From NCBI RefSeq assembly GCF_030814715.1, contig NZ_JAUSVO010000004.1, forward strand, positions 372,001-436,000: 64,000 nucleotides of DNA. The letters run 5' to 3'. A model generated the notes under the pieces. That model was not told the DNA's origin, searched no databases, and worked only from the letters and a program-made list of their open reading frames with translations. Of this stretch, positions 41,366-64,000 are shown piece after piece; the first letter of the stretch is position 1; every line of letters begins with the position of its first letter. The position numbers and the translations under genes are program-made. The DNA is from Kaistia dalseonensis. Lineage in GTDB: Bacteria > Pseudomonadota > Alphaproteobacteria > Rhizobiales > Kaistiaceae.

Positions 41366-41469
41366 GAGAACTGCATCCGGCGCCGACTTCTCGAACGCCC
41401 GGACATATGCTCCACATCTGATGTCGATGTGCTTCTTCTAGCGGTTACGCCATTCCATGTCCACCAAAC

Positions 41470-41502: not shown

Positions 41503-41529
41503 TTGATGAACGTTGCAGGAATCCCATCT

Positions 41530-44095: not shown

Positions 44096-44126
44096 CATGA
44101 TCGCGGGACAATAGGAAAGCAGGACC

Positions 44127-46429: not shown

Positions 46430-46646
46430 CGGATCACTCCACCCGTCCTTGGACGCTCGATTGCGAAAGACAGTCGCCGCGATAGGCGTCCTCTTCAAGG
46501 GGGAAGCGTCTCTGTTCGCGGAACGAGAAACAGTTGCATTCGATTGTCCACGAATCGGAGACAACCTTGTTCCGGCGACGTCGATTGTGTTTGCCGCCTC
46601 CCCGTCCGATCTTCTGGTCAACGAAATTCAACAGGAGAGTTCCACC

Positions 46647-47609
46647 ATGGATCTCAAGCTTGGAGGCTTCCACCACCTGACCGCCATCACGGCGAACGCC
46701 CCGGCCAATCTCGCCTTCTATACGAAGGTGCTCGGCCTGCGGCTCGTCAAGAAGACGGTCAACCAGGACGACACCAGCGCCTATCACCTGTTCTATGGTG
46801 ACGGTGCGGCTTCGGCCGGCTCCGACATCACCTTCTTCGACTGGCCCGTCGGCGCGGCGCGCCGCGGCACGCATTCGGTCGTCCGCACCGGCTTCCGCGT
46901 CGATGGCGACAGCCTCGGCTGGTGGCGCGATCATCTGCGCGGCAAGGGCGTCGCCACGGGCGATGTCGTGGAAGTCGGCGGTCGTCCGACCCTCACCTTC
47001 GAGGATCCGGAAGGCCAGCGTCTCGCTCTCGTCGCGAATGGCGCCCCGGCCGAACGTCACCCCTGGGAGAAGAGCATCGTCCCGGTCGAGCACCAGATCC
47101 TCGGCCTCGGCCAGATCACGATGAGCGTGCCCGACCTGACGCAGACCGAAGCGGTGCTCACCCGCGTGATGAACATGAAGAAGGTGCGCGAATATCCGGT
47201 CTCGGCGATCTCGAACAACCTCGTTCATGTGTTCGAGATGGGCAATGGCGGACCGGAAGCGGAGTTGCATGTTGCGGTCGAGCCCGATCAGCCGACGGCC
47301 CGCGAGGGCGCCGGCGGCGTGCACCATGTCGCGTTCCGCACCCCGGATTATGAGGGGCTGAAGGCCTGGACCGACCGGGTCCGTGGCTTCCGAGTTCCTT
47401 CCAGCGGCGAGGTCGAGCGCTATTATTTCCGCTCGCTCTATTTCCGCGAGCCGAACGGCGTTCTCTTCGAGATCGCGACCGACATACCCGGCTTCACGGC
47501 GGACGAGCCGCTGGCGACGCTTGGCGAACATCTCTCGCTGCCGCCCTTCCTCGAAGGGCGCCGCGCATCGATCGAAGCCAATCTGCAGCCGCTCGAAACG
47601 GCTGAGTAA
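46647..47609 (+). CDS. Ring-cleaving dioxygenase of the VOC superfamily (MhqO-like)
   Basis: A 320-residue protein with two glyoxalase/VOC modules (about 5-125 and 155-280). Metal-site residues are visible in GFHHLTAI (about 7-14), GVHHVAFR (about 230) and GVLFEIATD (about 275). In Bacillus, the MhqO family responds to quinones and is thought to cleave hydroquinone. ATG 46647 follows CAGGAGAG. The next gene, 6 bases on, is an MhqD-like esterase, the same pairing as in Firmicutes mhq loci. This suggests a quinone or electrophile detoxification operon. No MhqR-type regulator is adjacent. Confidence 0.87.
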
Positions 47610-47615
47610 GGACGG

Positions 47616-48296
47616 ATGATGGCCATTGAAAAGACGAGGGGCGACGCGCCCCATGCCGGACAACGTGTCTGGCAGGGCGGTGCGTCGCTGGACAAGGCCC
47701 GCGGTGCGGTCGTGATGCTTCACGGCCGCGGCGCCTCGGCCGATGATATCCTGTCGCTCTCCGATTATTTCGGCCAGTCCGACATCGCCTATCTTGCGCC
47801 GCAGGCGGCCGGCCACGTCTGGTATCCCCAGCGCTTCATGGAGCCGACGGAGCGCAACCAGCCCTGGCTTTCGGGCGCGCTCGGCGTGGTGCGCAACCTG
47901 GTCGACGATGTCGTCGCCTCGGGCATCGCGCCGGAGAATGTCGTGCTGCTGGGCTTTTCGCAGGGCGCCTGCCTGGCGCTCGAAAGCGCCGCCCGGCGGC
48001 CGCGCCGCTATGGCGGCGTGGTGGGCCTGAGCGGTGGGCTGATCGGCGCGGATAGCGAAATGTGGGCCGGTTCGCCTGAGATCGCCGGCACGCCCGTCAT
48101 CCTCGGCTGCTCCGAGCTCGACGCCCATATTCCGCTCGCCCGCGTCGAGGCGACGGCCGAGCGCTTCGAGACGAGCGGCGCGCATGTGACCAAGCGCATC
48201 TATCGCGGCTCGGGCCATGGCGTGAACGATGACGAGGTCGCGCTGATCCGCACCCTGCTCTCCGGCCTCGGAAAGCCGGCCGGCGCCAAGGACTGA
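47616..48296 (+). CDS. Alpha/beta hydrolase, phospholipase/carboxylesterase family (MhqD-like)
   Basis: A 226-residue serine hydrolase of the Abhydrolase_2 group. The oxyanion motif is MLHGRGAS (34-41), the nucleophile S115 is in GFSQGA, the acid is D169 in SELDAH and the base is H201 in GSGHGV. It follows the MhqO-like gene at 6 bases and should be cotranscribed with it. MhqD proteins are linked to quinone stress but their substrate is unclear. A strong hairpin follows the gene. Confidence 0.88.
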   Translation: MMAIEKTRGDAPHAGQRVWQGGASLDKARGAVVMLHGRGASADDILSLSDYFGQSDIAYLAPQAAGHVWYPQRFMEPTERNQPWLSGALGVVRNLVDDVVASGIAPENVVLLGFSQGACLALESAARRPRRYGGVVGLSGGLIGADSEMWAGSPEIAGTPVILGCSELDAHIPLARVEATAERFETSGAHVTKRIYRGSGHGVNDDEVALIRTLLSGLGKPAGAKD

Positions 48297-48314
48297 AACC
48301 ATCGGCACAAATAG

Positions 48315-48345
48315 CTTCGGCCGGCTCATCTCGAGCCGGCCGAAG
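48315..48345. terminator. Strong bidirectional terminator-like hairpin
   Basis: CTTCGGCCGGCTC (48315-48327) and GAGCCGGCCGAAG (48333-48345) form a perfect 13-bp stem with a 5-base loop. It lies between the convergent MhqD-like and autotransporter genes. Confidence 0.65.
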
Positions 48346-48378
48346 GCTTGGAGGAGGGTGCGAGAAGCCGTCCGCCGC

Positions 48379-50478
48379 CTACCAGTTGTAGCTCAGGCGT
48401 CCCGTGCCGGCGTAGGTCTGCGCTTCGCTGGCGAGCTTGCCATCGAGCGAAGCACCGAACGAGAAGCCGCCCGCGAGCTGGACGTCGGCGCCGAGGGTGA
48501 CGAGCAGCGAATCCGCGACCGGCGTCGCGCCCACAACGGTGAAGCCGACGCCCGGCAGCGACAGGAAGTTGGTCGCCACCGTATCGTTCGACCAGTTGTC
48601 ATGCGCCCATGCGAGCCGCCCGCGCAGCGTCAGCAGCGAATCCTGGTCGATCAAAAAAGTCCTGCCGATGCGGGCACCGAGCTCGGTATAGGTCGTCGTC
48701 GTGGTCTGCGCGTCATAATCGAGCGCGAAGAGCGAGGCAGGGTTCGCCGCGGTCTCGCTGTAGGACGGCGCGTAGAAGGCCTGCACCTGCAAGGCCGCAT
48801 AGGGCGTCAGCCAGCCATCTCCCGGCAGGCCCTTGATGGCCGGCATCGCGAAGCGATATCCGGTCTCGATCTGACCGGCCACGTCATAGGCGTCGAAATC
48901 GGCGGTGAACCGATCGCCGCCAATGCTGAGCGAGCGCTCCGTCGAAACCGAGTTCCACGATGTCGCGAGCGCCGCCGCGACATAGGCTGCGTTGAAATCG
49001 GTCCGGCCATAGATCGAGACCTGCGCGATGTCGCTGCTGCCACTGCCATAATTGTCGGCGAGGTCGAAATTCGTGCCGCCAGCGCCGAGCGCGAAGCCGA
49101 CTAGGCTGTTCGGCGTCACCTGATAGTCCAGACCGCCGACAATGCCCACGGTGGAAACCGAGCGGTCATGGGTGCCGATCGTATAGTCGCCATTGGTCTC
49201 GCTGGTGTCGCCATAGGCGGCGGCCCAGATGCTGAGCGGGCGCAGCACCGGCATCGTCTTCGTCGAGCCATTGTCGACCGCCGACATGGTTGAGGCGACC
49301 TGGGCCGGGCGCGGATCATCCGCGCCATAGCCGAGCGCCTTGACAGTCATGCCGCCCGGCCGATTGGTGTTGGCGGGGAGGGGAGCGTTGCTCGGGGGCG
49401 TGTTGAAGAGCTGGTCGTCGTTCAGCCGGTTGAAGACGCCGAGCAGAAAGCCGTTCATCGCCTGGTTGCCGGCCGGCGCGACTGCTGTCGAGATCTCACC
49501 GGAAAGCTCGGAGAATTCGGTCTTCAGTGCCTCCGCCGGCAGCAGATTGAAGAGGAGCGGCGTGGCGCCGCCGGCCGCGATATAGGTATCGAGGCCCTGT
49601 GCGACAGCGAGGGCGTTGGTCGGCACGGGCGTCGGCGTAGGCGTTGTGCTTCCGCCGCCTGTCGTGGGCGTGGTGGTTCCGCCCCCGGTGGTCGGCGTGC
49701 CGTTATCGCCGCCTGTCGTGGGTGGCGTGGTGGTGCCGCCATCGGTCGGCGGCGCCGTCAGTACGGTGCCGAAGGGCGTTGTCTGCGCGGTGCAGACCGA
49801 GATCGTGTTGCTGTCCAGCGTGACCGCGCCGTTCCGCGCCAGCGCGGCACCGCAATTGATGCTGGCATTGGTATTGAGCGTGATGCTCGTCAGCGCCAGG
49901 ATTTCGCCGGCGAAGGCGGTATCGGTGCCGAGCGTCGCCGAGCTTCCCGAGACGAAATAGACATTGCCGCCCTGCGCGCCGTTGACGAGAGCGACCGCGG
50001 CACCGCTGCTGGTGATCAGCGTCGAGCCGATATTGACGATGAAGACGGCGTTCGGATTGCCCTTGGCGTCGAGCGTCAGCGTTCCCGTCAATTGCGCCGA
50101 CGTATTGAACGAATAGACGCCCGGGCCGAGCACGAGGCCGGCCAGGTCCTTGCCGGTCAGGTCGATCGTGGTTGGGCGGCCCTGCAGGTCGTTATAGGCA
50201 GCCACGAGATCGATCTGCGCCTGCACCGCGACGCCGTCATTGGCGTGGATGACATAGGGCGCGGTGACGATGCCCGGCGGAAACCCGACAATGGCCGTTC
50301 CCGGGCTCACCCCGATATTACCGTTGATAATGCTCGTGCCTGTATTGGTGACGGTCGATCCGGCCAGGATGGCAAAAGAGCGAAGATCTTCCGCGCTGGC
50401 GCTCGAACAGGTTCCGATCGTCAGTGCGAATGGGAACGCAATGACTGAAGCAATCTTGGGCGCGCCGGGGAATTTCAT
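48379..50478 (-). CDS. DUF3494 (ice-binding-like) domain fused to an autotransporter beta-barrel
   Basis: A 699-residue surface protein. A Sec signal ends ASA-ED near residue 30. Residues about 32-230 match the DUF3494 ice-binding/adhesion fold (FAILAGSTVTNTG, GNIGVSPGTAIVGFPPG, TFDL-type repeats, GNVYFVSGSSATLG). A Thr/Gly/Pro-rich linker spans about 240-287. Residues about 430-699 form an autotransporter barrel with alternating aromatic strands, ending RLSYNW, the usual outer-membrane C-terminal signature. ATG 50478 follows GAGGTG. The passenger should be displayed outside the cell. The role may be ice binding or adhesion. The divergent Crp/Fnr gene may control it. Confidence 0.85.
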   Translation of the reverse strand: MKFPGAPKIASVIAFPFALTIGTCSSASAEDLRSFAILAGSTVTNTGTSIINGNIGVSPGTAIVGFPPGIVTAPYVIHANDGVAVQAQIDLVAAYNDLQGRPTTIDLTGKDLAGLVLGPGVYSFNTSAQLTGTLTLDAKGNPNAVFIVNIGSTLITSSGAAVALVNGAQGGNVYFVSGSSATLGTDTAFAGEILALTSITLNTNASINCGAALARNGAVTLDSNTISVCTAQTTPFGTVLTAPPTDGGTTTPPTTGGDNGTPTTGGGTTTPTTGGGSTTPTPTPVPTNALAVAQGLDTYIAAGGATPLLFNLLPAEALKTEFSELSGEISTAVAPAGNQAMNGFLLGVFNRLNDDQLFNTPPSNAPLPANTNRPGGMTVKALGYGADDPRPAQVASTMSAVDNGSTKTMPVLRPLSIWAAAYGDTSETNGDYTIGTHDRSVSTVGIVGGLDYQVTPNSLVGFALGAGGTNFDLADNYGSGSSDIAQVSIYGRTDFNAAYVAAALATSWNSVSTERSLSIGGDRFTADFDAYDVAGQIETGYRFAMPAIKGLPGDGWLTPYAALQVQAFYAPSYSETAANPASLFALDYDAQTTTTTYTELGARIGRTFLIDQDSLLTLRGRLAWAHDNWSNDTVATNFLSLPGVGFTVVGATPVADSLLVTLGADVQLAGGFSFGASLDGKLASEAQTYAGTGRLSYNW

Positions 50479-50603
50479 TGCCACCTCATAATTATCATCG
50501 ATCGAGGCTAGCAATAATAAGTTGGACTATCTGAGCAAAATCGCTCATTATATTTTATTCGACCGCTAAAAAATCGGGTATTGGCGCATTTTATGGAGGT
50601 ATT

Positions 50604-51284
50604 GTGGTAAAAGAACATATGTTGGATTTCGCGCTTTCTGAGTTCCTCTCTGGAGATTCTGGGGGAGGAAGCGCCGACAAATACGTGATAAACCAACAAG
50701 TTTACTCGCAGGGTGATCAGGCCGAAGCGATTTTCTACGTCCAGAGCGGTCGGATCAAGGTTTCTGTGCTGTCCGCCCAGGGGAAGGCGGCCGTGGTCGC
50801 GATTCTTGGCGAGGGCGATTTCCTTGGCGAGGCCTGCCTCGGTGCGCAGCTGACGCGCACGGCGACGGTCATCGCCATCACGGAATGCTGCATCACGCGC
50901 GTGGAGAAATCGATCTTTGCCCGTGCGTTGCATGACGAGCCTGTCTTCTCCGACCGGTTCGTCGCGCATCTGCTCGGCCGATCGATCCGCATCGAGGAAG
51001 ATCTGGTCGACCAGCTGTTCAATTCCAGCGAACGGCGCCTGGCGCGGGCGCTGCTGCTGCTCGCCAATTACGGCAGGGACACCCCGCCCGAACCGGTCCT
51101 TGCCCGGATCAGCCAGGAGACGCTGGCCGAGATGATCGGCACGACGCGCTCGCGCGTCAGCTTCTTCATGAACAAGTTCCGCCGGCTCGGCTTCATCAGC
51201 TATGACGGCACCGTCGAGGTGCATCCTTCGCTGCTGACGGCGGTGCTCTGCAACCAGTCCCGCGTCGACGATATTCCGAATTGA
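50604..51284 (+). CDS. Crp/Fnr-family transcriptional regulator, probable GTG start
   Basis: A 226-residue regulator. The N-terminal cyclic-nucleotide-binding beta roll (about 28-115) includes YSQGDQAEAIFYVQSGRIKVSV and GEGDFLGEACL. The C-terminal helix-turn-helix (about 155-215) includes SQETLAEMIGTTRSRVSFFMNKFRRLG. No FNR-type N-terminal cysteine cluster is seen, so it is not an iron-sulfur oxygen sensor. GTG 50604 follows GGAGGT at only 3 bases; ATG 50619 is too far from that site. It is divergent from the DUF3494 autotransporter gene across 125 bases. Confidence 0.87.
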   Translation: MVKEHMLDFALSEFLSGDSGGGSADKYVINQQVYSQGDQAEAIFYVQSGRIKVSVLSAQGKAAVVAILGEGDFLGEACLGAQLTRTATVIAITECCITRVEKSIFARALHDEPVFSDRFVAHLLGRSIRIEEDLVDQLFNSSERRLARALLLLANYGRDTPPEPVLARISQETLAEMIGTTRSRVSFFMNKFRRLGFISYDGTVEVHPSLLTAVLCNQSRVDDIPN

Positions 51285-51302
51285 ACGGGCGGCGGGTTGC
51301 GA

Positions 51303-51322
51303 CGGCCGGGTTTGCCCGGCCG
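51303..51322. terminator. Hairpin between convergent crp-like and L,D-transpeptidase genes
   Basis: CGGCCGGG (51303-51310) and CCCGGCCG (51315-51322) form a perfect 8-bp stem around TTTG, in the 79-base convergent gap. Confidence 0.55.
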
Positions 51323-51363
51323 GGCGCGCGGCCATGCGCATCACCCAGGTTGGCGGCGGCGCT

Positions 51364-51936
51364 TCAGGGCGTCACGATCACGGTGCTGCCGAGCGCCACG
51401 CGATCGAACAGATCGAGAATATCGTCATTATACATGCGGATGCAGCCATAGGAGACGAAGCCGCCGATCGATTTGGGCGCATTCGTGCCATGGATCGCAT
51501 AGCTGCCGCCGGACAGCGTCATGGCCGCCGCGCCCATCGGGTTCTGCGGTGATCCGCTCGGGATCACGTCGGGAATGCCGGGGCGATCGCGCTTGATCTC
51601 ATCGGGCGGCGCCCAGTTCGGTCGGATATATTTGCCGTCGATCGTCGACGTGCCGGCCCATTGCCGACCGGCGCGCCCGACGCCGACCTTGTAGCGCAGG
51701 GCCTGTCCCTTGGTCAGTACGAGATAGAGACGCCGTTCGGCGGTCCGCACGATGATGGTTCCCGGCGCCGCGCTGGCCGCCTGGAAGGCGACGAGATCGG
51801 CGGCCTCCGCGCCGCCTGTCGCAAGGCCCGCAAGCCAAGCGAACGCCGCCACGAGGGCGAGGCGCCGCGCGCGGCCCGCGACGATCGACCGGCCCGGGAA
51901 TGCCCCTGGCATTGCCCGCGCGCTGGCATGTTGCAT
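51364..51936 (-). CDS. L,D-transpeptidase (YkuD domain)
   Basis: A 190-residue periplasmic enzyme that makes 3-3 peptidoglycan cross-links or attaches proteins to the wall. A signal peptide is visible after an Arg-rich start, with AEA-AD near residue 46. The YkuD domain (about 60-190) has the catalytic H149 in YAIHGTN and C165 in VSYGCIRMYN. ATG 51936 has AAGGCGG upstream. Small YkuD proteins are multi-copy in Rhizobiales. Nothing in the neighbourhood hints at a special role. Confidence 0.9.
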   Translation of the reverse strand: MQHASARAMPGAFPGRSIVAGRARRLALVAAFAWLAGLATGGAEAADLVAFQAASAAPGTIIVRTAERRLYLVLTKGQALRYKVGVGRAGRQWAGTSTIDGKYIRPNWAPPDEIKRDRPGIPDVIPSGSPQNPMGAAAMTLSGGSYAIHGTNAPKSIGGFVSYGCIRMYNDDILDLFDRVALGSTVIVTP

Positions 51937-52246
51937 GGTCCGCCGCCTTTTCTCTGCTCGCTGAAAGCCGATCACGAGCCTCGATCGATAGAGCGCCTGA
52001 TCGCGCCCCGTTACAAGGGCGGGAAAGAGCCCGTGGCACGTCTTCGGCACGGGCACGCCGGGCCCGCGTGGCGTTTATTCACATCTCTCGCCCCGAAAGC
52101 GGGCGCATGCCGCATCTCGCGTTGACGAGCCCCGGTGATTGGCGCTAGAGAAGCGCCTGCCCAGAGGCGTTCAAGAGCAATCCGGTGCCAAAGCGCGGCT
52201 TCGACCAAAGCCCGTTGCCGGAATTGTGAGCGTCTCCAAAGGGTTC
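51937..52246. other. 310-base gap before tRNA-Ser
   Basis: Contains the leader of the L,D-transpeptidase gene on one side and the tRNA-Ser promoter region on the other. No open frame with supporting features, repeat or hairpin of note was seen. Confidence 0.5.
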
Positions 52247-52336
52247 GGAGAGGTGGCAGAGTGGTCGATTGCACCGCACTCGAAATGCGGCATACTCGCA
52301 AGGGTATCGGGAGTTCGAATCTCCCCCTCTCCGCCA
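52247..52336 (+). tRNA. tRNA-Ser (anticodon CGA)
   Basis: A 90-base class II tRNA. The acceptor stem GGAGAGG (52247-52253) pairs with CCTCTCC (52326-52332), with discriminator G and an encoded CCA (52334-52336). The anticodon arm is CCGCA-CTCGAAA-TGCGG with anticodon CGA at 52281-52283. A long variable arm and the T arm GGGAG-TTCGAAT-CTCCC follow. The last 14 bases serve as the integration site of the island downstream, which restores the gene intact. Confidence 0.96.
52323..52336. repeat. attL, 14-bp core in the tRNA 3' end
   Basis: CCCCCTCTCCGCCA, spanning the end of the T stem, the acceptor strand and CCA. An identical copy lies at 63073-63086. Confidence 0.88.
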
Positions 52337-52390
52337 ATTTAATCGCCCAAGATACGGAAATCGTTAGAGACTTTCGGGTCACTCTATACG

Positions 52391-52413
52391 TTGTCCTAAC
52401 GGATATCCTAACC
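52391..52413. repeat. Integrase arm-type sites inside attL
   Basis: TTGTCCTAAC (52391-52400) and ATATCCTAACC (52403-52413) match the three repeats in front of the integrase gene. Shared repeats at both ends are expected of the P and P-prime arms of an attachment site. Confidence 0.6.
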
Positions 52414-52544
52414 TGATTGCCTCCTAGCGCGGTTGTTTAGCGTTGTTCGCGGTCGCTCTTGCGCGTCGGGTTCCGCGAACCTACCTAATTGAAACCGAGC
52501 TTTGGCCGGCCGATGGAAGATCATCAAACCCCGTATTTCAACCG

Positions 52545-52580
52545 GGGCGATCACATCGGCCGCGTGCAGTGTGATCGCCC
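52545..52580. promoter_or_regulatory. 11-bp inverted repeat upstream of the AlpA-like gene
   Basis: GGGCGATCACA (52545-52555) and TGTGATCGCCC (52570-52580) are perfect complements around 14 bases, ending 18 bases before the AlpA-like start. It may be an autoregulatory operator or a leader hairpin. Confidence 0.5.
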
Positions 52581-52598
52581 GAACTAAGGCGATTTCAA

Positions 52599-52814
52599 AT
52601 GCCGGATCGGCCGCTCACCCTTAAGCAATTGACCGAGCCCGCCAGCGAGTACTTCGTTGGATCGCGCTCGTACATTTATACGCAGATCGCAGCAGGCGAA
52701 CTTCAGGCGAAAAAATTCGGCAGGGCTGTCCGTGTCATGCAGTCCGAACGCGAGAGGTTCATCGCGTCGAGGCCCGCCGCCGACATCAGGCTCGGCGGTC
52801 AGCGGTCGAGGTAG
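52599..52814 (+). CDS. AlpA/excisionase-like helix-turn-helix protein
   Basis: A 71-residue protein with a MerR/AlpA-type winged helix (LTLKQLTEPASEYFVGSRSYIYTQIAAGELQAKKFGRAVRV region, about residues 6-46). Proteins of this kind act as excisionases or activators of integrase expression in P4-like islands. ATG 52599 has AAGG upstream. It is the first gene after attL and opens the short operon leading to the RepA-like ATPase. No other excisionase candidate is present. Confidence 0.75.
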   Translation: MPDRPLTLKQLTEPASEYFVGSRSYIYTQIAAGELQAKKFGRAVRVMQSERERFIASRPAADIRLGGQRSR

Positions 52815-52822
52815 CCCCCAGC

Positions 52823-53098
52823 ATGATCGTGAACAGCGAACGGCGCCGGGTCTGGTCCCCCGGCGCCGCGCAGAATTCCAATGACTGTGAACGCTTCGAA
52901 GGTGGCGCTCCGCGCCGCCATCGTCAAGGTGTTGTCGATGTCCGGGACGACACCGGCTTCGTCGGCCGGATTGTCAGCGCCGAAACGGGAAGGTCGCTCG
53001 CCTTCCTCGTGACCGACGCAGGTCTCCGGCAGGTCGGCCCGATCTATGCGGGCCGTATCGCCGCACGCGCCGCGCTGTTCGAAGGGAGGGCGTCGTGA
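52823..53098 (+). CDS. Small hypothetical protein of the island
   Basis: A 91-residue protein not recognised. The N-terminal third is Arg/Ser-rich and poorly patterned; the C-terminal half (GFVGRIVSAETGRSLAFLVTD ... RIAARAALF) has a regular hydrophobic pattern. It starts 8 bases after the AlpA-like stop and its TGA shares a base with the start of the ATPase gene (TGATG), which supports real translation. A true start further inside the frame is possible. Function unknown. Confidence 0.55.
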   Translation: MIVNSERRRVWSPGAAQNSNDCERFEGGAPRRHRQGVVDVRDDTGFVGRIVSAETGRSLAFLVTDAGLRQVGPIYAGRIAARAALFEGRAS

Positions 53099-54033
53099 TG
53101 GCGAAGCTCTCCACCTTCACTGTCTCCGAACTGCTCGATCGGGATTTCGATCCGGTCAGCTTTGTCGTGCCTCGCTTCATCCCGATCGGCCTGACACTTC
53201 TCGCCGGCAAGCCGAAGATCGGCAAGTCCTGGCTCCTGCTGAACATCGCGCGCGCCGTCGCGCAGGGAGGCGTGTTGTTCGGGGAAGTGACGGAGCCCGG
53301 TTCGGTTCTAGTCTTGGCTCTGGAAGACAACGAGCGTCGGCTCAAGGCTCGGCTGAAAACGATGCTCGGCTCGTCGCCGCCGCCCGAGACGATGCACATG
53401 ACAACGAAATGCCCCCGTATCGGCGAAGGGTGCGAGCAGGCGATCACCGAGTGGGTGAAAACAGCCGATCGCCCGCGCCTCGTTATCGTTGATGTGCTCG
53501 GCCAAGTCCGGCCCAAGAGCGACAGCAAGCGCGCCTACGATGACGACTATGCCGCCATCGGCCCGCTGAAGAAGATCGCCGACGACGCCGGCATCGCCAT
53601 CATCGTTTGTCATCATACCCGCAAGGAACAGGCCGCCGATCCGTTCGACGCGATCTCCGGAACGACTGGCCTCGCGGGCGCTTCGGACACGGTCATCATC
53701 ATGGACCGTGGCCCGACCGGTACGACGCTGTACGGCCGGGGACGCGACCTCGAAGAATTCGAGGTCATGTTGTCCTTCGATCCGCGCGCCGGTTCTTGGC
53801 GCTTGGTCGGCGACGCCGCAGAGGCGACGCGCTCGGTCGAGCGCACGGCGATCCTCGCGGCGCTGCGGCAGATCGGGGCGCCCACCGGTCCGAAGGAGGT
53901 CGCTGATGCGGCGCGGCTTTCGGCTGGTTCTGTCAAAAAGATGATGCCGAAGATGGTCGCGGCCGGCGATCTCGTGAAGATGGCGCGCGGGACGTACTGG
54001 CTCGCCGATCAGCCCGATCCCGGACTGCACTAG
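53098..54033 (+). CDS. RepA-like AAA ATPase (AAA_25 family)
   Basis: A 311-residue RecA-fold ATPase like those encoded by plasmids and integrative islands for replication. Walker A is AGKPKIGKS (36-44) and Walker B is LVIVD (128-132). ALEDNERRLKAR and ICHHTRKEQAADPFDAISGTTGLAG are strong family signatures. The C-terminal 60 residues form a likely winged helix (TGPKEVADAARLSAGSVKKMMPKMVAAGDL). ATG 53098 is preceded by AAGGGAGGG at 7 bases. It may let the excised island replicate (inference). A hairpin covers the stop. Confidence 0.87.
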   Translation: MAKLSTFTVSELLDRDFDPVSFVVPRFIPIGLTLLAGKPKIGKSWLLLNIARAVAQGGVLFGEVTEPGSVLVLALEDNERRLKARLKTMLGSSPPPETMHMTTKCPRIGEGCEQAITEWVKTADRPRLVIVDVLGQVRPKSDSKRAYDDDYAAIGPLKKIADDAGIAIIVCHHTRKEQAADPFDAISGTTGLAGASDTVIIMDRGPTGTTLYGRGRDLEEFEVMLSFDPRAGSWRLVGDAAEATRSVERTAILAALRQIGAPTGPKEVADAARLSAGSVKKMMPKMVAAGDLVKMARGTYWLADQPDPGLH

Positions 54034-56988: not shown

Positions 56989-58785
56989 ATGTGGCGTGAC
57001 AGCGAGAGCGATCACGACTTTCTCAATTTCACAGAGATTGCGGATCAAATCGCAGCATTGGCAACGAATAACTCGTTGTTGCCAATCTCGATAGGCGTGT
57101 TCGGAACTTGGGGAACAGGCAAGTCGACTGTCTTGAAACTGGTCGAGGGTCGCTTGGCCCAAATATCGGCCGACAATCCAGAAGCCCCCGTGCCAATAGT
57201 GGTGAAATTTGACGCGTGGATGTACCAGGGTTTCGATGACGCGCGCGCAGCTCTTATGGAGGTTGTTGCATCACATTTATTGCAGGTTGCCGAAGAAAAG
57301 AAGACGTTAATCGATAAGGCCAAAGAGTTCGCTGGGCGCGTCAATTATTTCCGTGGCCTAGGCATGATAGCCGATTTCGGACTAGGCATTGCTCTTGGAA
57401 TTCCTCCCGGTCTCCTCACGCGAGCTGGATCGGCGGTCTCATCCATTTTTGCCGGAAGCGTCACTGACGCTCAATACAAAGAGCTGAAAGGTGACGCTGC
57501 CGATGTGACAAGAAGTCTCTCGGAACTTGTTAGGCCAGCCGAAAAACGTACACCACCGAAAGAAATAGCTGCCTTTAGGAGCGAATTCGGAGAGCTTCTC
57601 GAAGGGCTTAACACGACGCTGATCGTTTTTATCGACAATCTCGATCGATGTCTCCCGGACGTTGCGATAGGAACTTTGGAAGCCATTCGACTTTTTCTCT
57701 TCATGCCGCGAACCGCGTTCGTTATCGCAGCCGACGAAGATATGATCCGACATTCAGTTGCGAAGCATTTCAATGATCCGAATGCATCCCACGTTCGGGA
57801 CTATCTCGACAAGGTCATACAAGTTCCAATGCGCGTCCCGCAAGTCGGCGTACAAGACATTCGTGCATATATGTACTCTCTATTCGTCAGCCTCACTGCC
57901 CCCGATAATATAGTTGCAGTCAAGGAGCGCCTGCTCGGCGCGTTACAAAGCGGATGGAGAGGTGACAATTTCAACAAGGAGGAGATTGCTAAGCTTGCCG
58001 GTGAACCACAGGGTTTGCTCGACAACTTGGGAATAGCCGACAGGCTGGCTCCATTGCTGGCCTCTGCTCCAAAGATACAGGGCAACCCGCGCATCGTGAA
58101 GCGGCTGCTGAACGCCGTATCCCTGCGGCAGACGCTGGCCGCAAATCGCAAGATGAACATCGACTTAGCGACGCTGGCCAAACTCGCAATCTTTGAGCGC
58201 TGCACAGACGGTCCTGCGACGTTGGCGCTCTTCCATCTCATCATGGACAGCAAGGATGCGGAGAAACTGCTGCTGCCGCAGGCAAGGGTCAGGGGAAAAG
58301 CGCCCGAGGTCAAAGGCAAGGCTATTGATCTACCGACCGATTGGGCACCATACGCGGACTTCATAGAACAATGGCGAGAGCTACCACCACTGTTCGACAG
58401 CGCCGAGAAGCTTCGTCCGGCGGTCTTTTTGAGCCGCGACGTGATGGCGCCAGCATTGGGACGTTCGGACCTGAGCCATGCCGCGCGAGAAGCGATCGCT
58501 GCCCTATTGAAGGTCGACAACGTCAATTCGCCGGTCGGCAAGGAAATCATAAAGAGCCTCAACGCTACCGATCGACGCGCAGTTATGTCTGGCCTGATCG
58601 ATGGAATGCGTGACGCGGATTGGTCAGCAGCCGTGCCGGGCATCCATGGCGCTGCTTTGATCGCCGAGAATTCGCCGGAGGCGAAATCAGAACTGAAGGC
58701 ATTCGTCGGAGGCTTGCAGACCGATGAGATGAACAAGGGCGTTCTCTACCTGCTTCGAAAGATTGGACTGATCGGGGGCGCATGA
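56989..58785 (+). CDS. qatA: QatA: KAP-family P-loop ATPase of the QatABCD anti-phage system
   Basis: A 598-residue KAP NTPase. Walker A is GTWGTGKST (39-47), the KAP motif KFDAWMY is near 73-79, a hydrophobic segment that may contact the membrane lies at about 120-153, and Walker B is LIVFIDNLDR (211-220). The C-terminal half is helical. ATG 56989 follows AAGGGGGAGAG. It starts a four-gene operon whose order, KAP ATPase, unknown, QueC-like, TatD-like, is exactly that of QatABCD. The nucleotide chemistry of the system is not settled. Its codons are clearly less G+C-rich than the host genes. Confidence 0.92.
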   Translation: MWRDSESDHDFLNFTEIADQIAALATNNSLLPISIGVFGTWGTGKSTVLKLVEGRLAQISADNPEAPVPIVVKFDAWMYQGFDDARAALMEVVASHLLQVAEEKKTLIDKAKEFAGRVNYFRGLGMIADFGLGIALGIPPGLLTRAGSAVSSIFAGSVTDAQYKELKGDAADVTRSLSELVRPAEKRTPPKEIAAFRSEFGELLEGLNTTLIVFIDNLDRCLPDVAIGTLEAIRLFLFMPRTAFVIAADEDMIRHSVAKHFNDPNASHVRDYLDKVIQVPMRVPQVGVQDIRAYMYSLFVSLTAPDNIVAVKERLLGALQSGWRGDNFNKEEIAKLAGEPQGLLDNLGIADRLAPLLASAPKIQGNPRIVKRLLNAVSLRQTLAANRKMNIDLATLAKLAIFERCTDGPATLALFHLIMDSKDAEKLLLPQARVRGKAPEVKGKAIDLPTDWAPYADFIEQWRELPPLFDSAEKLRPAVFLSRDVMAPALGRSDLSHAAREAIAALLKVDNVNSPVGKEIIKSLNATDRRAVMSGLIDGMRDADWSAAVPGIHGAALIAENSPEAKSELKAFVGGLQTDEMNKGVLYLLRKIGLIGGA

Positions 58786-59648
58786 TGGGAACCTCTCGTC
58801 CGAAACCAGACGCGCCGCCCGCCTCACCATTGATCCCGCCGTGGGCAGATCAGGACCCGGCTCCTCCGACACCATTGCCCGATCCTCTCCCCGAAGACCC
58901 CCTACCTGAAGAGGAGGCAGACGCCGGACTGCCTGCGGATGAAGTCGTGGACGATGACGACGATGCAGGAGAGATCGCCGAACCACAGCGCTATCGAGGT
59001 TTCCGGATCGCCCTCAGTCGCTTTGCAAATTCGGGCGAGATCAGCGACGCGCGAACGGCTCTGAGCCGCTGGGTCAATAAATCAATGGGCGGGGGCGCAG
59101 CGGGTACCCGGCGTGTGGAACGGGCTGCACGAACCGGCGGTGCAGCCCTTGCTGGGGTCGCTAGGGCGGGCGCCGGACAACCCCCAGAAGGCGGCGCCCT
59201 CGACATCCGTACGCTGGCTGGTCAGCCCGTCGAAGCTGCGATCGGCGCTATCCTAGATGCCTTCATGCCACCCGGCATCTTGGACGAGGTCGCTGCCAGG
59301 CTGGCGATGGAAGAGGCGCTAGCGCAGGCACTTGGGACGGCCGACATATTCGACCCGGCCGCTCTGGATGCCAACGCGGTGCAGGTCGCGACCTTGGCGT
59401 TTGTCGCCGAGTTGGTTTTCGTACAAGTCGCCGGTGATGCAGGGCGTTCTTTAGCCTCAGTGGGGCCGGTCGCCGCGGCGAAGCGCGAAGCGGAAATCCG
59501 CTCGCTGGTGAGGGAGGTAGTGAGCTTGGTCGGAGCGCCGATACTAGCCGCTGCCGGGGCGGTGCTCAACGGACAGCGGATGTCGACGCTGATCTCCCGG
59601 TCAGTGCGAGAGGCACTTGAGGAAATCGCCAGATGGGAAGATCGCTAA
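58782..59648 (+). CDS. qatB: QatB: unknown-function component of QatABCD
   Basis: A 288-residue protein. The first 70 residues are Pro- and Asp/Glu-rich and disordered-looking. The rest is Ala-rich and helical (about 75-288), including FRIALSRFANSGEISDARTALSRW, which looks like the family core. No enzyme motif is seen; QatB is the uncharacterised member of the system. It overlaps qatA by 4 bases (ATGA). Its TAA is directly followed by the ATG of qatC, so all four genes are tightly coupled. Confidence 0.85.
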   Translation: MMGTSRPKPDAPPASPLIPPWADQDPAPPTPLPDPLPEDPLPEEEADAGLPADEVVDDDDDAGEIAEPQRYRGFRIALSRFANSGEISDARTALSRWVNKSMGGGAAGTRRVERAARTGGAALAGVARAGAGQPPEGGALDIRTLAGQPVEAAIGAILDAFMPPGILDEVAARLAMEEALAQALGTADIFDPAALDANAVQVATLAFVAELVFVQVAGDAGRSLASVGPVAAAKREAEIRSLVREVVSLVGAPILAAAGAVLNGQRMSTLISRSVREALEEIARWEDR

Positions 59649-60920
59649 ATGTTAACACGGACGCCGATCCGAGTTTTGGCCACGTCGAGCCCCGAACGTG
59701 CGACGGCAGCGCTTGCACGCGGCGACGTAGGCATCGCCCTATACCATAGCGGCCGGCCCCAATTGGCCGGTCTGGGGGCCAACCTACGAACCGCCGCCAT
59801 GCATCTCCCGCGCCCGCCATCGGCAATAGCATGGGACTTCCTGACGATCGCCCTCGCCGTATATGCCGCCGACCGCTTCGTTGTCAGGCGAGAGGCGCCC
59901 GACGCCTGGACGAGGATGATCCTGCTTGAAGTCGAGCTGTCGGACCCCGAGCCGTGGATCGCCCAAGCGGACGCATTGGCGGAGGCTCTTCGTTTTCTGT
60001 CCAGCGACATCTGGTATCTGAGGTTTCGTACCGGCGGCAGTCTCCCTCCAACCTTTCAAGCTCGGCCCTCAGATCGCGACTGCGCTTGCCTCTTTTCAGG
60101 CGGTCTGGATAGCCTAATCGGTGCAATCGATCTCCGCGCAGAAGGCCGTCGGCCGCTTTTGGTCAGCCAAGCGTCGCCGAAAGAGGGATCGGTTCAGGAC
60201 ATCCTGGCCGGTGAGATCGGAATGCTTGAACATCATTTCGCGGGAAGAGCCGCTGAGAAGTGGCGCCCGCCCTATGAGCCATCGTCGCGGGCACGGTCGA
60301 TGCTGTTCTTCGGGTATGGGGCGGTCGCGGCATCATCCATCGGCTCGATCGATGCCCCAGCCGACCTCGTTGTTCCGGAAAACGGCCTGATATCGATCAA
60401 CGCACCGCTGACACATCGGCATATCGGAAGCCTAAGCACGCGAACAACACACCCCCATTTCGTGAGTTCGCTTCAAGCAGTATTTGATGGCGTCGGCCTC
60501 GGCGTCCGCCTAGACAACCCATATGGGTTCAAAACCAAAGGCGAGATGCTTGCTCAATGCCGAGACCGCGTCATTGAACGACTTGCCGCGACCTCCTATT
60601 CCTGCGGTAAGGGCAAGAGGCTGAACAAGCAATGCGGTCGATGCGTGCCATGTCTGATCCGACGGGCATCGTTTGACGCGGCACGGGTCGCTGACGGAAC
60701 AAACTACTGGGCCGACGATCTGTCGCAGCACGCGGCGAACGAAGACGTGGCTTCGGCGCGCTTCGCTGCTGCAACTCTGGCTGAGCGAGATATCGACCGA
60801 TGGGTGTCGCAGGCTGGTCCACTGCCTAGCGATCCCACCCTGCGATCACGATATGTCGATGTGGTCCGTCGCGGGACCGAGGAGCTTCGAAGCTTCTTTG
60901 CTGGTATAGCGTGGCCATGA
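59649..60920 (+). CDS. qatC: QatC: QueC-like PP-loop ATPase of QatABCD
   Basis: A 423-residue enzyme related to 7-cyano-7-deazaguanine synthase QueC. The ATP-binding PP-loop SGGLDS is at 150-155. A zinc-binding cluster C319, C329, C332 and C335 (CGRCVPC) matches the QueC zinc site. The 140-residue N-terminal extension and 85-residue C-terminal tail are absent from housekeeping QueC, marking the defence form. No queD or queE genes are nearby, so queuosine synthesis is unlikely. It probably modifies a nucleobase or a protein (inference). Confidence 0.92.
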   Translation: MLTRTPIRVLATSSPERATAALARGDVGIALYHSGRPQLAGLGANLRTAAMHLPRPPSAIAWDFLTIALAVYAADRFVVRREAPDAWTRMILLEVELSDPEPWIAQADALAEALRFLSSDIWYLRFRTGGSLPPTFQARPSDRDCACLFSGGLDSLIGAIDLRAEGRRPLLVSQASPKEGSVQDILAGEIGMLEHHFAGRAAEKWRPPYEPSSRARSMLFFGYGAVAASSIGSIDAPADLVVPENGLISINAPLTHRHIGSLSTRTTHPHFVSSLQAVFDGVGLGVRLDNPYGFKTKGEMLAQCRDRVIERLAATSYSCGKGKRLNKQCGRCVPCLIRRASFDAARVADGTNYWADDLSQHAANEDVASARFAAATLAERDIDRWVSQAGPLPSDPTLRSRYVDVVRRGTEELRSFFAGIAWP

Positions 60921-61684
60921 TCGATCTTCACTGCCACCTTGATCTGTACCCCGACCCGACGGCATTGGTCGCTGAGTGCGTCGAGCGACGCGTCTACGTT
61001 CTGTCCGTGACCACGGTGCCCAGTGCTTTCACTGGCACCGCGGCACTCGCTGCGTCGGACAGTAGGATCAGAACCGCACTTGGCCTCCACCCAGAAATCG
61101 CCGCGTCGCGATCACGTGAGCTGCCGCTTTTCGAACGGCTTCTTCCGCTAACCCGATACGTGGGCGAAGTCGGACTTGATGGTTCGAGGGACCACAAGGC
61201 GACCTTTGATGCGCAACGGAGCATCTTCGCAGACATCCTTCGGATGTGCGCGCGTGCCGGCGGCAAGGTTCTGTCGATCCACAGTCGCGGCGCGACCGGC
61301 GCCGTGTTGGATGCCCTCTCTGCCGAGCCTACCGCTGGCTGCAGTGTTCTGCATTGGTATGTTGGCACCGGAAAGCAGGTGGCTAGAGCGTCCGAAATGG
61401 ACTGCTGGTTCTCGGTCGGGCCTTCTATGCTCGCAAGCGAACGTGGCCGTTCCGCGGTAGCTGCCATGCCTCGCGATCGCGTACTCCCCGAAACGGATGG
61501 GCCATTCTGCTCGTTCGAAGGTCAACCAGCTCGGCCTTGGGACGCCTGGAGCATTGTGCCGATGCTTGCATCCATCTGGGGTGAGGATGATCAGAGCGTC
61601 GCTAGCCGAATGCGCACCAACCTAAAGGCGCTGTCCGATATCGCCCAAGCGCTGCCACCTGCTGGCGCTAGGAGGCCGACCTGA
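60917..61684 (+). CDS. qatD: QatD: TatD-like metal-dependent nuclease of QatABCD
   Basis: A 255-residue TatD-family hydrolase. All metal ligands are visible: H5 and H7 in DLHCHLD, E84 in GEVGLDG, H122 in IHSRG, H146 in LHWY and D194 in ETDGPF. The nuclease fold is complete, so catalytic activity is expected. ATG 60917 overlaps qatC by 4 bases; a GTG six bases earlier is possible. Its end overlaps the convergent integrase by 17 bases. Its place after qatC completes the QatABCD set. Confidence 0.92.
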   Translation: MIDLHCHLDLYPDPTALVAECVERRVYVLSVTTVPSAFTGTAALAASDSRIRTALGLHPEIAASRSRELPLFERLLPLTRYVGEVGLDGSRDHKATFDAQRSIFADILRMCARAGGKVLSIHSRGATGAVLDALSAEPTAGCSVLHWYVGTGKQVARASEMDCWFSVGPSMLASERGRSAVAAMPRDRVLPETDGPFCSFEGQPARPWDAWSIVPMLASIWGEDDQSVASRMRTNLKALSDIAQALPPAGARRPT

Positions 61685-62903
61685 TCGGTCGAACGTTGTC
61701 GCCGCCCTTTGCGGACTTGCCTTCCAAGTAGCCCGCCCAGGCGGTCATCAGCTTCCGGCGTTTCTCCAGCGCATCGCCGCGCCGATAGGCGGCTTCCACT
61801 TTGTCGCCAACGGTATGCGCGAGCGCCGCCTCGGCGACCTCGCGCGGGAAGGCGGTCGCCTCGCCGCACCAGTCTCGGAAGCTGGATCGGAAGCCGTGCA
61901 CGGTCGGCTCCGGCTCGATCTTCAACCGCCGCACCACCATCGTCATCGACATGTTCGACAACACCTTCCCCGTCCGGCCGCTCGGGAACACCAAGGCGGT
62001 CGGGTTCGGCTTTCCGCTTTCCGGCAGAAGCTCCTTCAGGATGGCCACGGCGCGATCGGGAAGCGGGACGCGATGCTCGCGGCCCGCCTTCATTCTATCG
62101 CCGGGCACGGTCCAGACCTTCTCGTCGAGGTCGATCTCTCCCCATGCCGCACCCAGCGTTTCGCCGGTCCTCGCGGCGGTCAGGACCGTGAACTCCAGCG
62201 CCCGCGCCGAAGTGCCCGGAACCGCGCGAAGCCGCTCCATGAAGCCGGGAAGCTCGGCGAAGGGCATGGCAGCGTGGTGCCCGCGCGTCGCCTTCTTCTC
62301 CTTCGGCAGGAGAACATCGAGGTGCCCCTTCCAGCGCGCCGGGTTCGCATCGTGCCGGAGCCCCTTAGCCGTGGCGGCGTCGAGAACCTTCTCGATCCGG
62401 CCACGCAGCCGGCTCGCGGTCTCCCGCTTCTCGATCCAGATCGGCTTCAAGACGCGCAGCACGTCCTCGGTGGTGACGGCATTTACGGCAAGGTCGCGGA
62501 TCGGCGCCGCGTATTCCTTCAACGTCATTTCCCACTGAGCAATATGCTTCTCGTTCCGGAACCCCGCCTTGAGGCTATCGAGCACCTCCGTGGCCATCTC
62601 GCCGAAGGTCGGGATTGCCTTGAGCTTGTTCCGCTCGGCATTGCGCTCGGCGATCGGATCGCGACCTTCAAAAACGTCGTTTCGGAATTTCGCTGCAATC
62701 TCTCTCGCCTTCGAAAGGGAAACGGTATTGACGCTCCCGAGACCGGCCTCGCGCTGCTTGCCGCCGGCACGGGTCAGGAACACCCACTGCTTCGAACCGC
62801 CCTCGGCGACCCGGAGATACAGGCCGCCGCCATCACTGTAGCGGCCGGGGGTCTTGACCGACTTCACGGTCAGGGATGAGAGGCGATGGAGCGTCCGGGC
62901 CAT
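61668..62903 (-). CDS. P4-type tyrosine-recombinase integrase of the island
   Basis: A 411-residue site-specific recombinase. The N-terminal DUF4102 arm-binding domain (about 1-90) has LTVKSVKTPGRYSDGGGLYLRV. The core-binding domain spans about 95-185. The catalytic domain has R245 (TAARTGE), H336 and R339 (HGFR), H363 and Y373 (AAYRRGD). All active-site residues are present, so it should be functional. ATG 62903 lies directly beside the TTGTCCTAACC arm sites. It reads into the island from near attR. It should cut at the 14-bp core in tRNA-Ser. Confidence 0.94.
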   Translation of the reverse strand: MARTLHRLSSLTVKSVKTPGRYSDGGGLYLRVAEGGSKQWVFLTRAGGKQREAGLGSVNTVSLSKAREIAAKFRNDVFEGRDPIAERNAERNKLKAIPTFGEMATEVLDSLKAGFRNEKHIAQWEMTLKEYAAPIRDLAVNAVTTEDVLRVLKPIWIEKRETASRLRGRIEKVLDAATAKGLRHDANPARWKGHLDVLLPKEKKATRGHHAAMPFAELPGFMERLRAVPGTSARALEFTVLTAARTGETLGAAWGEIDLDEKVWTVPGDRMKAGREHRVPLPDRAVAILKELLPESGKPNPTALVFPSGRTGKVLSNMSMTMVVRRLKIEPEPTVHGFRSSFRDWCGEATAFPREVAEAALAHTVGDKVEAAYRRGDALEKRRKLMTAWAGYLEGKSAKGGDNVRPIRSAS

Positions 62904-62941
62904 TTGTCCTAACCATTCTTGTCCTAGAACTTGTCCTAACC
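62904..62941. repeat. Three TTGTCCTAACC repeats in front of the integrase gene
   Basis: TTGTCCTAACC at 62904-62914, TTGTCCTAGAA at 62919-62929 and TTGTCCTAACC at 62931-62941 are direct repeats starting one base before the integrase ATG. They are probable arm-type integrase sites and may also autoregulate the gene. Confidence 0.68.
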
Positions 62942-63072
62942 GATACGGTGGATTGGAGCGGACGGTCAAGGACGGCCGAACACAAGCGATCCAGAAAGAA
63001 CCGTTGCGTCAGTAGGTTGCTAGCGGCGATCAGGCACGTCAGCGCACACCGGAAAACAGGCAGTTCAGCGGA

Positions 63073-63086
63073 CCCCCTCTCCGCCA
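63073..63086. repeat. attR, 14-bp core
   Basis: CCCCCTCTCCGCCA, identical to 52323-52336. It is not part of a tRNA gene here, so it is the recombination remnant at the right end of the island. Confidence 0.88.
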
Positions 63087-63563
63087 TCAACTAACCCATT
63101 GATTTAGTTATTATTTTTATCTTTTGACGCCGCGATTTCGCTGGTCATTTCCGCGGCTTGCGGCTGCCTCATCGCTGTCGTGGTTTCAGGAGACGTTTTT
63201 CCGGCCGAATCCGGGCCACTTTCTCTCCCGCGTCTCCCTGCCGCCTTTCGGCAGTACCGAAGCTCGGTCGGACCGGGACTCGGCGTTTCGTAGCCTGCGT
63301 GCCGGCCGGTGGTCATGAGTGGCGAAGAAGAGACAACTTCTACGACGACCGTGGAACCGATAGCTCGTCGGTTTCTGATCGCAGTCGGCAGCGTCGCTGG
63401 ATTCGCGTGAGCAGCAGGCAAGCTGCGACGCCCGCGGTAGGCCAAGGCGGGAGGCGATGCATCGATTTGCCTGGAAGCGATGGCCTGACCGGCTGGCGGC
63501 AAGGATGTCCAATGCGATGCAGTCGGGGTCGGTGTTCGTGTCGCTAAGCAGTCCGGGAGACCG
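63087..63563. other. 477-base gap right of the island
   Basis: It begins with an AT-rich stretch (63100-63120), unlike the surrounding DNA. No credible gene is present; an open frame on the minus strand is Ser/Thr/Arg-rich and without a known motif, and it overlaps the recombinase end. It could be decayed mobile DNA. Confidence 0.4.
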
Positions 63564-64000
63564 CTACTCGAACCCGAGCGCCTGACGCTGTCCCGACCAG
63601 TCGATCGAAAGCCGCGTATCGGCCATGATCTTGTTGGCCGTGAGTTCGACGGGCTGTCGGCCATCGAGGATGGCGGTGACGATATCAGGCGCCACGAAGG
63701 CCAGTCGCAGCAAGCGGGTCAAATAGGACGCGGTTAGCCGCTCCTGCTCCGCCAATTGGGTGATGGTTCGATCGGGATCGGCAACGAGACGATCCCGCAT
63801 CTGATGCGCACGAGCGACAAGGCGAACGAGACTGTGATCAGGCCGGGCTCCTGTTTCTTTGCCCGGCACTACGAGACGCAGTTCGAAGCCAGATCGCCTG
63901 AAGGCGACGTGGACCGTCAGCAAGATGATGTCGCGCGCGCCGCGCTCGCTGGAGTGAGGGGCCAAAGCGGGCTCGTCTGGGTGGCTCGTTCCGATAACGC
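63564..64000 (-). CDS. C-terminal part of a serine-recombinase-like protein, cut by window edge
   Basis: The frame is open to the right edge, so only the last ~145 residues are present. The segment VRLVARAHQMRDRLVADPDRTITQLAEQERLTASYLTRLLRLAFVAPDIVTAILDGRQP, followed by DWSGQRQALGFE, is the helical C-terminal signature common in large recombinase (resolvase/invertase) family proteins of Rhizobiales. The catalytic serine domain lies beyond the window. Whether the gene is intact cannot be told. It suggests a second mobile element next to the island. Confidence 0.65.
   Translation of the reverse strand, partial: VIGTSHPDEPALAPHSSERGARDIILLTVHVAFRRSGFELRLVVPGKETGARPDHSLVRLVARAHQMRDRLVADPDRTITQLAEQERLTASYLTRLLRLAFVAPDIVTAILDGRQPVELTANKIMADTRLSIDWSGQRQALGFE

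What the first reader, a model, noticed from the sequence alone, without database searches (positions are those of the whole stretch)
56989..61684. Complete QatABCD anti-phage operon on a tRNA-linked island
Seen: four genes with 0-4 base spacing or overlap, in the order KAP ATPase (Walker A and B intact), Pro/acidic-plus-helical QatB, QueC-like QatC (SGGLDS and Cys cluster), TatD-like QatD (all metal ligands). Known: this set and order define QatABCD, an experimentally shown but mechanistically unresolved defence system. Inference: all active sites look intact, so it should be functional. QatB has an unusually Pro/Asp/Glu-rich 70-residue N-terminus that may be specific to this variant.
Basis: partly seen in the sequence, partly recalled or inferred. 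Interest (0 to 1): 0.8.

Follow-up and report, generated by a model that had tools for sequence, protein, structure and literature searches.

The report
Phage-defence operon without expected cofactor pathway
A complete, intact-looking copy of the known QatABCD anti-phage operon sits on a small mobile island beside a tRNA gene, in a bacterium that appears unable to make the small molecule its key enzyme has been proposed to use, which makes an open question about that enzyme testable.

Summary
Window 56989-61684 carries four tightly coupled genes matching QatA, QatB, QatC and QatD (PADLOC 595, 107, 329, 300 bits) with catalytic motifs intact. The island reading also holds: a 14-bp repeat of the tRNA-Ser 3' end bounds a 10.8-kb element with its own integrase, and one congener shows the same tRNA joined directly to the right flank. 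The idea that the QatB N-terminus is special to this variant is wrong: a long disordered tail opening with MGTS is a family hallmark (PMC13279940; 78 of 81 operons here), and the true start is probably 58785, not 58782. So this is a new member of a known system. What is new is host context. The host genome (100% complete) has no detectable QueC, QueD or QueE, so no known route to CDG (7-carboxy-7-deazaguanine), the donor used by QatC's cousin Cap9. QueC was not found in any of 28 sampled genomes of its family. Nine of 50 qatC-bearing genomes lack both QueC and QueE. This suggests that QatC uses a donor other than CDG. That is inference; function in such hosts is untested.

The parts
52247..52336 (+). 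tRNA-Ser (CGA), the integration target; its last 14 bases are the left attachment core
   Evidence: ARAGORN; repeat
52323..52336 (+). att core, left copy (CCCCCTCTCCGCCA)
   Evidence: same tRNA joined to the right flank in congener G468
52599..52814 (+). small protein (71 aa), weakly excisionase-like
   Evidence: TIGR01764, 22.1 bits, below its cut-off of 28.8; no Pfam match
53095..54033 (+). AAA ATPase of the island (RepA/DnaB-like)
   Evidence: PF13481 96.8 bits; PF03796 21.5 bits, below its cut-off of 27
56989..58785 (+). qatA, KAP-family P-loop NTPase
   Evidence: PADLOC QatA 594.7 bits; PF07693 165.9 bits; NCBIfam QatA 372.9 bits, under its cut-off of 600
58785..59648 (+). qatB, likely start at the second ATG giving MGTS; Pro/Asp/Glu tail of about 67 residues, then a helical domain (by homology)
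   Evidence: PADLOC QatB 106.6 bits; NCBIfam QatB 57.8 bits, under its cut-off of 100; phmmer match to solved QatB 9zee_A, E 7.9e-12, aligned from the GTS start; MGTS in 78 of 81 operons
59649..60920 (+). qatC, QueC-family ATP-dependent enzyme
   Evidence: PADLOC 328.5 bits; NCBIfam QatC 327.7, over its cut-off of 280; solved QatC 9vlk_A E 4.8e-58
60917..61684 (+). qatD, TatD-like metal-dependent nuclease
   Evidence: PADLOC 300.2 bits; NCBIfam QatD 326.7, over its cut-off of 230; 3gg7_A E 7.7e-77
61668..62969 (-). tyrosine integrase of the island, convergent with qatD
   Evidence: PF22022, PF13356, PF00589
63073..63086 (+). att core, right copy

Best explanation
This is a bona fide qatABCD operon carried as cargo of a small integrative element that entered the 3' end of a tRNA-Ser gene, presumably by its own tyrosine integrase. 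QatB and QatC form the working core. After removal of the initiator Met, the QatB tail puts its N-terminal Gly into the QatC active site, and QatC uses ATP to attach an acyl group to it; modified QatB restricts phage, with QatA (DNA-binding NTPase) and QatD (nuclease) widening the range. Shown elsewhere (PMC13279940): the complex, ATP in the QatC site, the need for Gly2 and for the Thr pair, and the effect of QatA and QatD on phage range. Inferred there: the attachment reaction. Inferred here: because this host and others carrying qat operons have no detectable route to CDG, the donor is more likely a molecule other than CDG (this last clause alone: about 0.5).
For: Family matches and order. 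att repeat; same tRNA-Ser(CGA) joined to the right flank in congener G468. QatB MGTS start in 78 of 81 operons and STxTxHP, the Thr pair that replaces the CDG-recognising Tyr/Asp, in 81 of 81. No QueC over cut-off, no QueE and no QueD match in the window's own genome, 100% complete, although tgt is present. QueC in 0 of 28 family members against 16 of 33 genomes of other families of the order. Of 50 qatC genomes, 9 lack both QueC and QueE and 7 of these QueD too. In the class, 4 of 8 qatC genomes lack both, against 234 of 377 of the rest (Fisher p 0.49, 73). Absence of QueE is scattered on the QatC tree (18 changes; shuffled mean 18.8; 84).
Against: No experiment on this operon. Presence in CDG-less hosts may be recent transfer without function; the island is mobile. 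Most qatC genomes do have the pathway (QueC in 37 of 50; QueE in 59 of 80). The QueE profile is imperfect: G386 and G396 have QueC but no detected QueE or QueD, and 29 of 147 QueC-bearing class genomes had no QueE match, so an undetected CDG route cannot be wholly excluded. tgt in this host suggests salvage of 7-deazaguanines; uptake of CDG itself was not tested. Completeness of the other eight genomes that lack both genes is not told, and some are metagenome assemblies. QatA and QatB are under NCBIfam's curated cut-offs. The window QatC sits on a long branch of unsure place.
Confidence: 0.88

Rival explanations
1. QatC deazaguanylates QatB with CDG as Cap9 does with its CD-NTase; operons in CDG-less hosts are idle passengers on mobile DNA, or depend on CDG taken up from outside or made by an infecting phage.
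For: The QatB Gly start and the QatBC complex mirror Cap9 (PMC13279940). A second paper takes carboxydeazaguanylation as the proposed reaction (PMC13329287, passages). The defence assays that I saw in these two papers were done in E. coli, and the E. coli control genome rings for QueC, QueE and QueD. Most qatC genomes have the pathway. The element is mobile.
Against: CDG-recognising Tyr/Asp are replaced by invariant Thr, and putting Tyr/Asp in abolished defence; CDG was not seen in crystals grown with it (PMC13279940). QatC occurs in genomes without QueC and QueE at about the background rate of the class (small numbers). Two actinobacterial operons in hosts without detectable QueC, QueD and QueE form one clade and differ in QatC by dN 0.24 with dS not computable (taken as saturated), motifs kept.
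Confidence: 0.3
2. The host makes CDG by an enzyme set too divergent for the profiles used here.
For: G386 and G396 have canonical QueC but no QueE or QueD match; 29 of 147 QueC genomes of the class have no QueE match.
Against: The window's genome and every sampled genome of its family also lack QueC, the usual consumer of CDG (0 of 28), and three models (TIGR00364, TIGR03365, PF01242) and my own QueE profile all fail in it.
Confidence: 0.1
3. A queuosine-biosynthesis or type IV CBASS locus misread as Qat.
For: QatC carries a QueC domain (PF06508 24.4 bits, gathering score 22).
Against: QatC-specific models score over 320 bits and the canonical QueC model 16.7 of 150.3; no queD or queE in the genome; no CD-NTase family among the island proteins scanned.
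Confidence: 0.01

Closest known systems
QatABCD of Pseudomonas aeruginosa and E. coli (PMC13279940; PDB entries 9zee/9zef and 9vlk/9vll)
   Same: Same four genes in the same order; QatB GTS start and long tail; QatC SGGxDS, Thr pair and Cys cluster; QatC phmmer E 4.8e-58, QatB E 7.9e-12
   Different: Diverged sequence; shorter spacing before the CxxCxxC (C-x9-C here, longer in the solved pair; the short form also occurs in other plasmid operons); host without detectable CDG genes
Type IV CBASS Cap9
   Same: QueC-family enzyme acting on the N-terminal Gly of a partner protein (as told in PMC13279940); the same is proposed for QatC
   Different: No CD-NTase found here; CDG-recognising Tyr/Asp replaced by Thr; extra N- and C-terminal extensions (as told for QatC in PMC13279940)
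Canonical QueC of queuosine biosynthesis
   Same: SGGxDS ATP motif and Cys cluster
   Different: 16.7 bits against a cut-off of 150.3; host has no detectable queD or queE

Membership tests
QatABCD | Four genes qatA-qatB-qatC-qatD in this order, tightly coupled | tested here: met
QatABCD | Each protein matches its Qat model in PADLOC | tested here: met
   594.7, 106.6, 328.5, 300.2 bits
QatABCD | NCBIfam curated equivalog cut-offs | tested here: inconclusive
   C (327.7/280) and D (326.7/230) over; A (372.9/600) and B (57.8/100) under. In the 10 plasmid operons fetched, the record names qatC in 9 but qatA in 2 and qatB in 3, so these two cut-offs look strict
QatABCD | QatB N-terminal MGTS motif, conserved Pro/Trp and long disordered tail | tested here: met
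   MGTSRPKPDAPPASPLIPPWAD from 58785; aligned to solved QatB. Disorder itself was not computed
QatABCD | QatC ATP motif SGGxDS, Thr pair and four zinc Cys | tested here: met
QatABCD | Anti-phage activity; QatBC complex | not testable with these tools
   needs plaque assay and pull-down
Type IV CBASS | CD-NTase partner gene | tested here: not met
   no such Pfam family among the four qat proteins and six other island ORFs scanned; other, mostly overlapping ORFs were not scanned
Queuosine operon | queD/queE neighbours and canonical QueC score | tested here: not met
   QueC model 16.7 of 150.3 bits; no QueD or QueE match in the genome

The most novel reading that the evidence does not exclude
QatC is an N-terminal-glycine acyl ligase whose donor is not a 7-deazaguanine: a common carboxylate metabolite, or even the carboxylate of another protein, so that qatABCD works in hosts that cannot make CDG. 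The window's operon, in a family in which no sampled genome has QueC, is a natural test case.
Probability: 0.5. Interest if true: 0.7.

Novelty: new member of a known kind. Interest (0 to 1): 0.42.

Why it matters
What QatC does is an open question in the 2026 structural paper, whose authors could not reconstitute the reaction and left the CDG-like model open. The survey here indicates that qat operons occur without regard to whether the host can make CDG, and that the one in this window sits in a family in which none of 28 sampled genomes has QueC. That turns the substrate question into one simple test in a laboratory E. coli strain and would, if borne out, turn the search for the donor away from 7-deazaguanines.

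Tried and rejected
QatB tail as a variant-specific feature: rejected (MGTS tail is general).

Conserved double start ATGATG before MGTS: rejected; an ATG codon directly precedes the MGTS start in 2 of 78 operons, the window being one.

att repeat by the repeat finder with a minimum length of 18: nothing; found by reading the tRNA end and confirmed by pattern search.

G467 as a second empty site: I first took it for one (79% match to the joined query); one search shows that its tRNA is tRNA-Ser(GCT), not CGA, so it is not the empty site and I dropped it. What it shows is that the right flank also lies beside another tRNA-Ser gene.

Named identity of the host: not obtained.

dN/dS by YN00: failed in 4 of 5 pairs for QatC and for QatB; NG86 gave no dS for 2 of 5 QatC pairs and 1 of 5 QatB pairs; values are a rough guide only.

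Cap9 as a positive control for CDG dependence: considered, not run. I had no Cap9-specific profile, and I expected the PADLOC QueC model to ring for canonical QueC too (not tested).

Papers: PMC13279940 read in parts 1, 2, 3 and 5 of 6, plus a term search; PMC13329287 passages only. Two other QatBC papers cited there were not read: PMC13376578 is not held, and the Gao Z. preprint was not looked up. The Cap9 paper PMC13044698 is not held; only the listing of its preprint was seen. I found no statement on co-occurrence of qat with queE in print by searches and the term searches; the unread papers could hold one.

Rows dropped: L051 not held; L051 and L101 left out of the tree (the qatC frame of L101 is short and lacks SGGxDS). 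MGTS not found by pattern in L055, L064 and L120: qatC lies close to the contig end in L120 and fairly close in L064; in L055 a QatB-like frame is there but its start region is not in frame.
Full report
WHAT IS THERE. Four genes lie end to end at 56989-61684 on the plus strand. Against PADLOC they score as QatA (594.7 bits), QatB (106.6), QatC (328.5) and QatD (300.2). Pfam gives KAP_NTPase, QueC (24.4 bits, just over its cut-off of 22) and TatD_DNase, and nothing for QatB, which agrees with the statement in PMC13329287 that QatB has no Pfam model. NCBIfam puts QatC and QatD over their curated cut-offs and QatA and QatB under them. Those two cut-offs look strict: in the 10 plasmid operons fetched, with the same gene order, the record names qatC in 9 but qatA in 2 and qatB in 3. 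QatC and QatB align to the solved proteins (9vlk/9vll, 9zee/9zef). The catalytic motifs are present.

THE START OF QATB. The ORF as listed begins at 58782 with Met-Met-Gly-Thr-Ser. The published work proposes that the exposed N-terminal Gly of QatB, after Met removal, is the acceptor; G2D and deletion of residues 16-22 (with conserved Pro16 and Trp18) abolish defence (PMC13279940). The second ATG at 58785 gives exactly MGTS, followed further on by Pro-Pro-Trp, so it is the likely start. Among 80 operons from a genome collection plus the window, an ATG, GTG or TTG followed by Gly-Thr-Ser opens a QatB-sized frame in 78 of 81 (66 ATG, 11 GTG, 1 TTG). The doubled ATG is incidental (2 of 78). The first 67 residues hold 18 Pro and 19 Asp/Glu; the paper gives tails of 30-90 residues for many QatB and 65 for P. 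aeruginosa, so the length is ordinary.

THE ISLAND. tRNA-Ser(CGA) ends at 52336. Its last 14 bases recur at 63073-63086 (0.06 expected by chance). The stretch between holds a weakly excisionase-like small protein, an AAA ATPase and, next to the right core, a tyrosine integrase. A query that joins the two outer flanks across one core aligns without a break in the congener G468 at 89%, and there the tRNA is tRNA-Ser(CGA), identical over its 90 bases. Of 13 congeners searched this is the one such case. In the eight congeners whose tRNA-Ser(CGA) locus I hold, the left end of the element (52337-52636) gives no match. A second apparent case, G467 (79%), turned out to be tRNA-Ser(GCT): it shows that the right flank itself travels, as do two further copies in the window's own genome. 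The right flank is therefore probably the end of another element that uses tRNA-Ser genes, and the qat island may sit in tandem with it. QatA is 54.1% G+C against 64.8% for the window, which fits foreign origin.

THE HOST LACKS THE EXPECTED DONOR PATHWAY. Cap9 of type IV CBASS joins CDG to an N-terminal Gly (as told in PMC13279940). CDG is made by QueD and QueE (PMC13329287). In the window's own genome (100% complete, 1.22% contamination): QueC model TIGR00364, best 27.7 bits against a cut-off of 150.3; QueE model TIGR03365, none; QueD model PF01242, none; a QueE profile that I built from 20 QueE proteins of qat-bearing genomes, none at E 0.01. tRNA-guanine transglycosylase is present (461.9 bits), which suggests salvage. 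QueC was found in none of 28 family members searched (the window's genome, 13 congeners, 14 others) but in 16 of 33 genomes of other families of the order, so this looks like a lineage trait and not an assembly gap.

HOW GENERAL. In 50 qatC-bearing genomes (49 from the collection plus the window's; L051 was not held), QueC is over cut-off in 37. My QueE profile separates cleanly: 39 genomes at 125.9 bits or more, the other 11 at no more than 43.1 bits; 20 of the 39 supplied the profile and match by construction. Nine lack both QueC and QueE (G000, G387, G397, G398, G403, G406, G410, G414, G433), and seven of these also lack QueD (not G403 and G414). Four have QueE without QueC over cut-off (G426, G428, G431, G432) and two the reverse (G386, G396). 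In the remaining 30 genomes, 20 have QueE at 112 bits or more and 10 do not; these were not searched for QueC or QueD. Over all 80, 59 have QueE and 21 do not. For a background I searched 385 genomes of the class: QueE in 118 (E 1e-20), QueC in 147 (E 1e-25), every QueE genome having QueC. Of the 8 genomes with QatC over cut-off, 4 lack both, against 234 of 377 of the rest (Fisher p 0.49); counting 12 genomes with QatC of at least 109 bits, 7 of 12 against 231 of 373 (p 0.77). The numbers are small, but a strict need for home-made CDG predicts none. On a QatC tree of 79 rows the QueE-lacking hosts are scattered (18 changes needed, shuffled mean 18.8), so operons move between both kinds of host. 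Two operons from Actinomycetota without detectable QueC, QueD and QueE form a clade with full support; their QatC are 69% identical (dN 0.24; dS not computable) with motifs kept. That looks like maintenance in CDG-less hosts, although separate transfers from one source are not excluded.

LIMITS. 29 of 147 QueC-bearing genomes of the class have no QueE match (that search scored up to 7 candidates a genome), and G386 and G396 have QueC without detectable QueD or QueE, so detection of the pathway is not perfect. This is why I rest the argument on genomes that lack QueC as well. Completeness of genomes reached through other tools is not told, and some are metagenome assemblies. Most qatC genomes do have the pathway. 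I know of no operon in a CDG-less host that has been shown to defend.

HOW IT LIKELY WORKS. Shown elsewhere (PMC13279940): QatBC alone protects against some phages; QatC binds ATP; its ATP site, its Thr pair and the QatB Gly start are essential; putting in the Cap9 residues Tyr/Asp abolishes defence; CDG was not seen in crystals grown with it. The Thr pair (STxTxHP) is kept in 81 of 81 QatC here, SGGxDS in 80 of 81. Inferred: QatC acylates the N-terminal Gly of QatB with ATP. Inferred here: the donor is more likely not CDG. I put the operon's identity and the QatBC mechanism at 0.88 and the non-CDG donor at about 0.5.

NOVELTY. As a locus this is a new member of a known system, on an ordinary small island. 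The pattern of hosts is not described in what I could find (searches; term searches), but two relevant papers were not read.

Noticed in passing
L034:4736-5467 (Deinococcus radiodurans plasmid pCP1): The QatD of this operon matches the solved chain 3gg7_A over its full 244 residues at 556 bits; the molecule name there is only 'uncharacterized metalloprotein', so a QatD crystal structure seems to exist unrecognised.
   Followed up: partly
window 63087-63300, and G000:C3:662583 and C3:668208, and L145 (G467): The flank to the right of the island recurs twice more in the same genome and lies beside tRNA-Ser(GCT) in a congener: probably the end of another element that uses tRNA-Ser genes.
   Followed up: partly
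G386 (genome of L042, Azospirillum) and G396 (genome of L055, Burkholderiaceae): Canonical QueC over cut-off without any detectable QueD or QueE: a different CDG route, uptake, or another use of QueC.
   Followed up: no
G426, G428, G431, G432 (genomes of L101, L104, L115, L116): The reverse: QueE and QueD present but no QueC over cut-off; they may make CDG for something other than preQ0.
   Followed up: no
window 63564-64000, continuing in L141:564-2213 (minus strand): One open frame of 549 aa whose first part looks by eye like an IS3-type transposase and whose later part looks like a recombinase C-terminus: possibly an insertion junction (recognised by eye, not by a profile).
   Followed up: no
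QatC zinc motif, window QatC 319-335: Two spacing classes of the Cys cluster seem to occur in QatC: short (about C-x9/10-C, as here) and long.
   Followed up: no
window 40000-52000: 58 plasmid records match some part of it, none most of it; six of them at 99% or more, and 33 of the 58 are Sinorhizobium; possibly an insertion element.
   Followed up: no
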